Shown here: positions 6,937 to 54,696 of the stretch, piece by piece
Numbering within the stretch: the stretch's first letter is position 1
Layout of the letters: every line of letters starts with the position of its first letter
Assembly (NCBI RefSeq): GCF_000003815.2
Contig: NC_049979.1
Coordinates: 2,599,268-2,663,267, forward strand
DNA length: 64,000 nt
Direction of reading: 5' to 3'
Source of the DNA: Branchiostoma floridae
Taxonomy: Eukaryota; Chordata; Leptocardii; Amphioxiformes; Branchiostomatidae
The notes under the pieces: generated by a model
The model's database searches: none
What the model saw: the letters and a program-made list of their open reading frames with translations, nothing else
What the model was told of the DNA's origin: nothing
Translations under genes and position numbers: made by a program

Positions 6937-7377
6937 GATGGCGGCACGGCAGGTGGGGGAGGCGGTGTGCGTGGCGGCGCTGGTGCTACTGCTGGCCGGG
7001 GGAGGGGTCCGCCTGGCGGCAGCGGACGGAAGCAGCGCGTCCTGGCGGGAGGAGGAGGGGGGTCCCCCCGAGGAGGACCTGGAGCTGCTGGCGTTCCGCG
7101 GACTGCGGTCCGGGGAGGACGGGGGCGTTCCCGACAGCGGGTTCCTGCCGACCCTGCCGGTGTTCAGTGGATTTACCGCCGCCAAGTCCCGGGAACCTAC
7201 TGGTGGTACTTCTTATTTCGACGACTCGTCCGAGGCCCAGGAAGGGTCTTCAGACGAGGACGAAAGCGACGAGGAGGAGTTCGACGCGCTCTCCGTGATC
7301 CGCGGCGTCCGGAAACACGCCGAGCTGCAACCCGACACAGCCGACGAGTTCGTCGATGACGACGACGACGACCGCAG
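6937..7377 (+). CDS. grem: Gremlin first coding exon (signal peptide and acidic propeptide)
   Basis: The exon starts at G6937 after a long pyrimidine tract (6909-6932) and AG at 6935-6936, so the ATG at 6938 is almost the first base of the exon. The upstream 5' UTR must therefore come from another exon. It encodes residues 1-146 plus two bases of codon 147. The donor GT is at 7378-7379. Apart from the signal peptide the exon is low-complexity, rich in Asp, Glu, Gly and Ser, and has no cysteine outside the signal peptide. Reading through the donor gives only an (AT)n-encoded tail, so the exon end is secure. Confidence 0.9.

Positions 7378-54696: not shown

What the first reader, a model, noticed from the sequence alone, without database searches (positions are those of the whole stretch)
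6938..54696. Tail-to-tail Gremlin-Formin pair: the pre-duplication state of GREM1-FMN1 and GREM2-FMN2
The sequence shows a Gremlin on + and the C-terminal exons of an FMN-class formin on -, with no recognisable gene between them. In human, GREM1/FMN1 and GREM2/FMN2 are both convergent neighbours. A single convergent pair in a cephalochordate-like genome implies the linkage predates the vertebrate genome duplications and both vertebrate pairs descend from it. Since Fmn1 introns and flanks hold Grem1 limb control elements in mouse, the linkage may be kept by enhancers inside formin from before limbs existed.
Basis: partly seen in the sequence, partly recalled or inferred. Interest (0 to 1): 0.88.

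Follow-up and report, generated by a model that had tools for sequence, protein, structure and literature searches.

The report
Ancient Gremlin–Formin gene neighbours
In what looks like a lancelet genome, the gene for the BMP blocker Gremlin sits tail-to-tail with an FMN-type formin gene, as in vertebrates; the pairing is real and old, a shared neighbourhood was already described in 2014, and why it has lasted was not tested.

Summary
A two-exon Gremlin gene (+, 6938-9164) faces the 3' end of an FMN-class formin (-). On that model the gap between stop codons is 10,461 bases, not 45 kb, with no assembly gap in it. The FH2 and FH1 parts lie outside the window. The assembled FH2 scores 1.6e-85 and is about 50% identical to recalled human FMN1/FMN2, about 25% to DAAM1/DIAPH1. 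Searches found one Gremlin and one copy of the formin's Spire-binding exon.

The block extends: a 7B2/SCG5 gene lies on + 32 kb upstream of Gremlin (as on human 15q, recalled), and methionine synthase lies 154 kb away (as on human 1q43 near FMN2/GREM2, recalled).

Descent of both vertebrate pairs from one such block is the best reading. The linkage is not new: PMC4079206 (2014) describes limited synteny of Grem with FMN among human, Branchiostoma floridae and a limpet, so it probably predates chordates. The enhancer explanation is plausible from mouse work and untested here. Interest is modest.

The parts
6938..7377 (+). Gremlin coding exon 1 (start codon, signal-peptide-like N terminus, acidic stretch), phase 2 donor
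   Evidence: an acceptor-like CCGCAG precedes the ATG
8696..9164 (+). Gremlin coding exon 2 with the DAN cystine-knot domain; stop TAA 9162-9164
9165..19625 (.). Interval between the two stop codons (10,461 bases, no N run), if the terminal exon is right
19626..20252 (-). Probable formin terminal coding exon (Lys/Glu/Ser-rich tail with KSLKERF; stop at 19626-19628)
   Evidence: acceptor cctgtgttccag, phase 0; 1 of 500 shuffles has any frame fully open; similarity to recalled FMN1 tail is weak; other frames and the opposite strand are also partly open
20253..34799 (-). Last formin intron in the model (tandem arrays, a 100-N run)
34800..34893 (-). Probable formin penultimate exon, phase 2 in, phase 0 out
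   Evidence: second of 76 candidates by score; the only one of 76 with both strong splice sites; see control
34894..54546 (-). Formin intron after the FSI exon (a 100-N run)
54547..54696 (-). Formin exon with the end of FH2 and the FMN/Capu-type C-terminal (FSI, Spire-binding) motif
   Evidence: 4.3e-30 here, next match in the genome 0.04
54697..55081 (-). 39-bp tandem array abutting the FSI exon; units read ..CCCTCCTCAG on the minus strand
54697..64000 (-). Formin intron leading to the next exon, which lies outside the window (C1:2664976-2665027)

Best explanation
This is a single-copy form of the vertebrate GREM1-FMN1 and GREM2-FMN2 neighbourhoods. SCG5(+), Gremlin(+) and an FMN-class formin(-) stand in that order, with Gremlin's 3' end facing the formin's 3' end across about 10.5 kb. 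The two vertebrate pairs most likely arose when such a block was copied in the vertebrate genome duplications, the chr1 copy losing SCG5 and the chr15 copy losing MTR (inferred, human maps recalled). Gremlin makes a secreted BMP antagonist and the formin an FH1-FH2 actin nucleator with a Spire-binding tail, so a shared pathway is an unlikely glue. The likeliest reason for lasting linkage is regulatory: Gremlin enhancers in the gap and the formin's large 3' introns make a break harmful. Shown here: gene identities, order, orientation, gene structure in outline. Inferred: descent of both vertebrate pairs. Hypothesised only: the enhancers (about even odds). The confidence below is for the ancestral-pair reading.
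For: Gremlin identity (67.8% to GREM2 over 115 columns, 64.0% to GREM1 over 114). FMN-class identity: FH2 1.6e-85; 50.0% and 49.1% to recalled FMN2 and FMN1 against 25.1% and 24.1% to DAAM1 and DIAPH1, the FMN rows split from DAAM1+DIAPH1 at 100/100 in a five-row tree; one FSI exon. Phase-consistent 15-exon model. SCG5: three phase-consistent exons on + at C1:2541687-2541897, 2543974-2544114 and 2549729 onward, Secretogranin_V 2.9e-14. MTR at C1:2448039-2452255. Papers: Grem1 and Fmn1 linked in all vertebrate species analysed there, limb control region between Fmn1 coding exons 19 and 23 (PMC3541112, passages); CRM2 includes Fmn1 exon 22, CRM2, CRM5 and CRM8 are ancient, shark CRM2 and CRM5 drive reporters in mouse limb buds (PMC8455560, passages); limited Grem/DAAM/Lgmn/FMN synteny of limpet with amphioxus and human (PMC4079206, section 9 with figure legend).
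Against: Trees did not resolve the vertebrate paralogues from the gene here. FMN1, FMN2 and SCG5 letters and human gene order were recalled. Another formin locus, L006 (C6:9.63 Mb), also scores best to the FMN rows (98, 90, 88 bits against 72 DIAPH1 and 39 DAAM1), and L004 and L007 match only, or best, the FMN of this locus at 62-64 bits, so a second FMN-related formin is not excluded. The FH2 family list (29 matches) did not itself list this locus. A 5051-residue PDB chain named Formin 1, organism not shown, scores 75.8 bits, below DAAM1 at 103.5. HEATR1 is on C15 and RYR is 25 Mb away on C1, so the wider block is loose. The SCG5 family search gave no hit before exons were found by eye and tblastn. 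The FSI exon gave no relevant PDB match. Exact GLI sites are not enriched.
Confidence: 0.8

Rival explanations
1. Passive linkage: the two genes were neighbours in an early animal and slow rearrangement has not separated them; no enhancer holds them together.
For: RYR and MTR are on the same chromosome, a DAAM-like formin is 1.4 Mb away, PMC4079206 assigns DAAM, FMN and Lgmn to one ancestral linkage group, and GLI sites are not enriched.
Against: Adjacency with order and orientation at 10-kb scale here and in both vertebrate copies (papers and recall) is more than chromosome-scale inertia usually keeps (judgement); mouse work places Gremlin enhancers within Fmn1.
Confidence: 0.4
2. Assembly artefact: scaffolding across 100-N runs put unrelated pieces side by side.
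For: Four of the window's five 100-N runs lie in or beside the pair, two of them between the terminal and FSI exons.
Against: Gremlin exon 2 and the probable terminal exon share one gapless piece; phases fit across the gaps; SCG5 and MTR neighbours fit recalled vertebrate order; a Grem/FMN neighbourhood was described using an older B. floridae assembly.
Confidence: 0.03
3. The exons at 19626-20252 and 34800-34893 belong to another minus-strand gene, or are not exons, so the formin ends nearer 54547.
For: Similarity to recalled FMN tails is weak; a score of 27 or more is reached in 35 of 100 shuffles, and 30 of 100 shuffles hold some candidate with both good splice sites whatever its score.
Against: Phases chain from FSI to stop with strong splice sites; both features together occur in 1 of 100 shuffles; no other gene was recognised there.
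Confidence: 0.15

Closest known systems
Vertebrate GREM1-FMN1 locus (limb deformity locus; mouse chr2, human 15q13)
   Same: Linked Gremlin and FMN formin with the formin's 3' part facing Gremlin; Scg5 in the mouse region (PMC8455560, passages)
   Different: Gremlin here has two coding exons; no ARHGAP11 neighbour was sought and RYR is 25 Mb off; enhancer content unknown
Vertebrate GREM2-FMN2 locus (human 1q43, recalled)
   Same: Convergent pair; MTR in the same chromosome segment
   Different: No SCG5 beside GREM2 (recalled); RYR 25 Mb off, HEATR1 on another chromosome
Grem/FMN neighbourhood of human, Branchiostoma floridae and Lottia gigantea (PMC4079206, 2014)
   Same: Same genes in a shared neighbourhood, a common cis-regulatory element suggested as the cause
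   Different: The text speaks of limited synteny over two amphioxus scaffolds and gives no orientation, SCG5 or MTR; the figure itself was not seen

Membership tests
Gremlin (DAN family) | DAN cystine-knot domain | tested here: met
   PF03045 4.4e-40
Gremlin (DAN family) | Closer to GREM1/GREM2 than to other DAN members | tested here: met
   Gremlin-2 8e-55, NBL1 5.6e-12; 67.8 and 64.0% against 40.9% to the C15 DAN gene
FMN-class formin | FH2 domain | tested here: met
   PF02181 1.6e-85, profile 2-372 of 372
FMN-class formin | FH2 groups with FMN1/FMN2, not DIAPH/DAAM/INF | tested here: met
   with FMN references recalled; INF2 and FMNL3 compared by score only
FMN-class formin | C-terminal FSI (Spire-binding) motif | tested here: met
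   alignment to recalled FMN1/FMN2 tails; no PDB match; binding itself not tested
FMN-class formin | Polyproline FH1 upstream of FH2 | tested here: met
   ORF C1:2702505-2703218; its splice to FH2 was not checked
GREM-FMN linked pair | Adjacent and convergent | tested here: met
GREM-FMN linked pair | Gremlin enhancers in formin 3' introns | not testable with these tools
   no chromatin data or second genome; GLI-site count uninformative
7B2/SCG5 | Secretogranin_V domain with PPNPCP | tested here: met
   PF05281 2.9e-14 over profile 83-146 of 232; whole-genome family search missed it
7B2/SCG5 | C-terminal VVAKKS-type inhibitor peptide (recalled) | tested here: inconclusive
   two candidate exons by motif, tblastn E only 0.69 and 1.2; not joined to the gene by phase
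Lancelet origin of the window | Cephalochordate genome | not tested
   513 Mb in 431 contigs fits B. floridae (size recalled); a GFP-family marker search did not complete

The most novel reading that the evidence does not exclude
SCG5(+)-GREM(+)-FMN(-) is a three-gene block of fixed order and orientation that predates vertebrates, held together because the formin's oversized 3' introns and the 10-kb gap are an ancient Gremlin control domain later taken over for fins and limbs.
Probability: 0.3. Interest if true: 0.65.

Novelty: already known. Interest (0 to 1): 0.35.

Why it matters
It gives the anatomy of a textbook regulatory landscape in an animal without limbs: in mouse, Gremlin limb enhancers lie within Fmn1, and here the same two genes already face each other with large formin 3' introns between. 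That makes the age of the landscape testable with chromatin maps and reporter assays. A shared Grem/FMN neighbourhood was described in 2014.

Tried and rejected
Rejected: formin as DAAM or DIAPH, and as INF2 or FMNL3 by score. Rejected: a second Gremlin; the whole-genome search scored 15 candidates and listed 5 DAN matches, the other four weaker, on C15, C16, C14 and C179; three of them (L030, L031, L032) look Cerberus-, sclerostin- and NBL1-like by eye and recall. Rejected: misassembly as the main explanation. Not settled: whether L006, L004/L007 or other formin loci are FMN-related. Led nowhere: Rfam (0 matches), tRNAs, PDB search with the FSI exon, exact GLI sites (2 in 64 kb, reached by 13 of 100 shuffles; both lie in the formin intron upstream of the FSI exon), Pfam on 5 flanking ORFs (one PHD match over cut-off). 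Neighbour families tried by whole-genome search: RYR (4 matches, all C1:27.68-27.72 Mb), SCG5 (no hit), MTR (C1), HEATR1 (C15), fumarase (not completed). The first exon join was off by one base at two donors, corrected. The control for exon l with two of three recalled probes did not exceed shuffles (24 against up to 31); with all three it did (39 against up to 33 in 100 shuffles). Paper searches: gremlin+formin+synteny+amphioxus, 7 papers; Grem1+Fmn1+conserved+amphioxus, 0; GREM2+FMN2+GREM1+FMN1, 0; gremlin+formin+microsynteny, 2; SCG5/GREM1/FMN1/synteny, 15 listed, none about invertebrate linkage by title or abstract start; 7B2/SCG5/amphioxus/invertebrate, 10 listed, not opened. PMC6298421 and PMC12425909 were opened for passages only and did not bear on the pair.

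Full report
What is there. The window is G000:C1:2599268-2663267 of a 513-Mb genome in 431 contigs. Gremlin is on +: coding exon 1 at 6938-7377 and coding exon 2 at 8696-9164, joined in phase 2, giving 302 residues. The DAN domain scores 4.4e-40. The best solved structures are Gremlin-2 and Gremlin-1 at 8e-55 and 1.2e-51; NBL1 is at 5.6e-12. A whole-genome search lists five DAN matches; this is the strongest, at 9.4e-38.

The formin. The exon at 54547-54696 (-) carries the FMN/Cappuccino C-terminal motif (name recalled). With recalled human FMN1 and FMN2 as probes, tblastn found FH2 exons on the minus strand upstream, outside the window. I placed 15 exons with GT-AG borders and a consistent frame: twelve at C1:2664976-2702118, the FSI exon, and two probable 3' exons at window 34800-34893 and 19626-20252. 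A polyproline ORF lies upstream at C1:2702505-2703218; more 5' exons were not modelled. The first 441 residues score 1.6e-85 to FH2. In PDB they match DAAM1 (103.5 bits), DIAPH1 (100.7), FMNL3 (78.0), a 5051-residue chain named Formin 1 (75.8, organism not shown) and INF2 (67.6); no vertebrate FMN FH2 is named there. Identity is 50.0% to recalled FMN2, 49.1% to recalled FMN1, 25.1% to DAAM1 and 24.1% to DIAPH1. A five-row tree splits FMN from DAAM1+DIAPH1 at 100/100, but the order within FMN is open, as is that within Gremlin. The FSI exon has one strong copy in the genome (4.3e-30; next 0.04).

Other formins. Of eight loci held, L001 and L008 (C1:4.04 Mb) are DAAM-like, L002 (C7:1.64 Mb) DIAPH-like. 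L003 leans to DAAM1 and L005 to DIAPH1. L006 (C6:9.63 Mb) scores best to the FMN rows (98, 90, 88 bits; DIAPH1 72, DAAM1 39), and L004 and L007 (C6:14.35 Mb) match the FMN of this locus at 62 and 64 bits but not the recalled human FMNs. So I do not claim this is the only FMN-related formin, only that its FSI exon is single. The FH2 family search (29 matches) did not list this locus at all, probably because its exons are short.

Correction to the finding. If the two 3' exons belong to the formin, the gap between stop codons is 10,461 bases (9165-19625), with no N run. The penultimate exon ranks second of 76 candidates by score and is the only one with both strong splice sites. By score alone it is not significant (35 of 100 shuffles); 30 of 100 shuffles hold some good-site candidate; both together occur in 1 of 100. 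For the terminal exon, 1 of 500 shuffles has a fully open frame. Exon l exceeds 100 of 100 shuffles with three probes but not with two.

Neighbours. On + lie three phase-consistent exons of 7B2/SCG5, at C1:2541687-2541897, 2543974-2544114 and from 2549729 (tblastn E 7.8e-5, 1.9e-13 and 2.5e-4), with Secretogranin_V 2.9e-14 for their join. Two further exons with VVAKKS and VAAKKS, at 2560824-2560898 and 2574081-2574164, are put to this gene by motif only (tblastn E 0.69 and 1.2). The last ends 32 kb before the Gremlin start. The whole-genome family search had missed SCG5. A 9.2-kb N run lies between. Mouse Scg5 lies in the Grem1 region (PMC8455560, passages); human order SCG5(+)-GREM1(+)-FMN1(-) is recalled. 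Methionine synthase is at C1:2448039-2452255, 154 kb from Gremlin; in human it lies on 1q43 with FMN2 and GREM2 (recalled). RYR is on C1 at 27.7 Mb. HEATR1 is on C15.

Literature. [quoted passage not shown] the conserved elements are absent from the ray-finned fishes examined. PMC8455560 (passages): eight candidate modules in the deletion region; CRM2, CRM5 and CRM8 are ancient; CRM2 includes Fmn1 exon 22. PMC4079206 (section 9 with figure legend; passages): a limpet scaffold with SOSD and Grem shares 'limited synteny' with two amphioxus scaffolds and three human chromosomes, including DAAM, Lgmn and FMN, and the authors suggest a common cis-regulatory element, citing Irimia 2012, which is not held. 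The figure was not seen, so that Grem and FMN share one amphioxus scaffold there is my inference. SCG5, 7B2 and MTR have 0 occurrences in that main text.

Mechanism. The two proteins act in unrelated ways, so a shared function is an unlikely glue. A regulatory domain spanning the gap and the formin's 14.5-kb and 19.7-kb 3' introns is the likeliest cause, by analogy with mouse. Exact GLI sites number 2 in the window, reached by 13 of 100 shuffles, both in the formin intron upstream of the FSI exon. Passive retention remains a serious rival.

Limits. The species was not identified by any search. Vertebrate FMN and SCG5 letters and human gene order are recalled. No second invertebrate genome was available.

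Noticed in passing
window 54697-55081: A 39-bp tandem array of about 10 copies abuts the formin FSI exon; on the minus strand the units carry CCCTCCTCAG, so a 3' splice-site-like sequence recurs.
   Followed up: partly
L012, C1:2693859-2694350: Four partial matches to formin exon f (RFLFELSNIPSF..) lie in the intron upstream of the complete exon, and a fragment of exon j recurs at C1:2674260-2674298 (recalled probes).
   Followed up: no
L022 and L021, C1:2560824-2560898 and 2574081-2574164: The SCG5/7B2 gene may have two C-terminal inhibitor-like peptide exons (VVAKKS and VAAKKS) where vertebrate 7B2 has one (recalled).
   Followed up: partly
window 13607-14389, 22831-24374, 46947-48413: Large minisatellite arrays (46, 57 and 98 bp units) in the gap and formin introns; the 57-bp family seems by eye to recur in reverse at 14779-15193.
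   Followed up: no
window 57553-58296 (-): A 248-residue open frame that looks by eye like a LINE-type reverse transcriptase piece; no Pfam match over cut-off.
   Followed up: no
C1:2590048-2599267: A 9,220-base run of N ends exactly where the window begins, between SCG5 and Gremlin; genes there cannot be excluded.
   Followed up: no
L001 and L008, C1:4.04 Mb (-): A DAAM-like formin lies 1.4 Mb from the FMN gene on the same chromosome, in line with the DAAM-FMN linkage group named in PMC4079206.
   Followed up: partly
L006, C6:9.63 Mb (+): A formin exon pair (GNYMNGCTPRGQADGYKLDILTKLRDV) resembles FMN more than DIAPH1 or DAAM1; its class was not settled.
   Followed up: no
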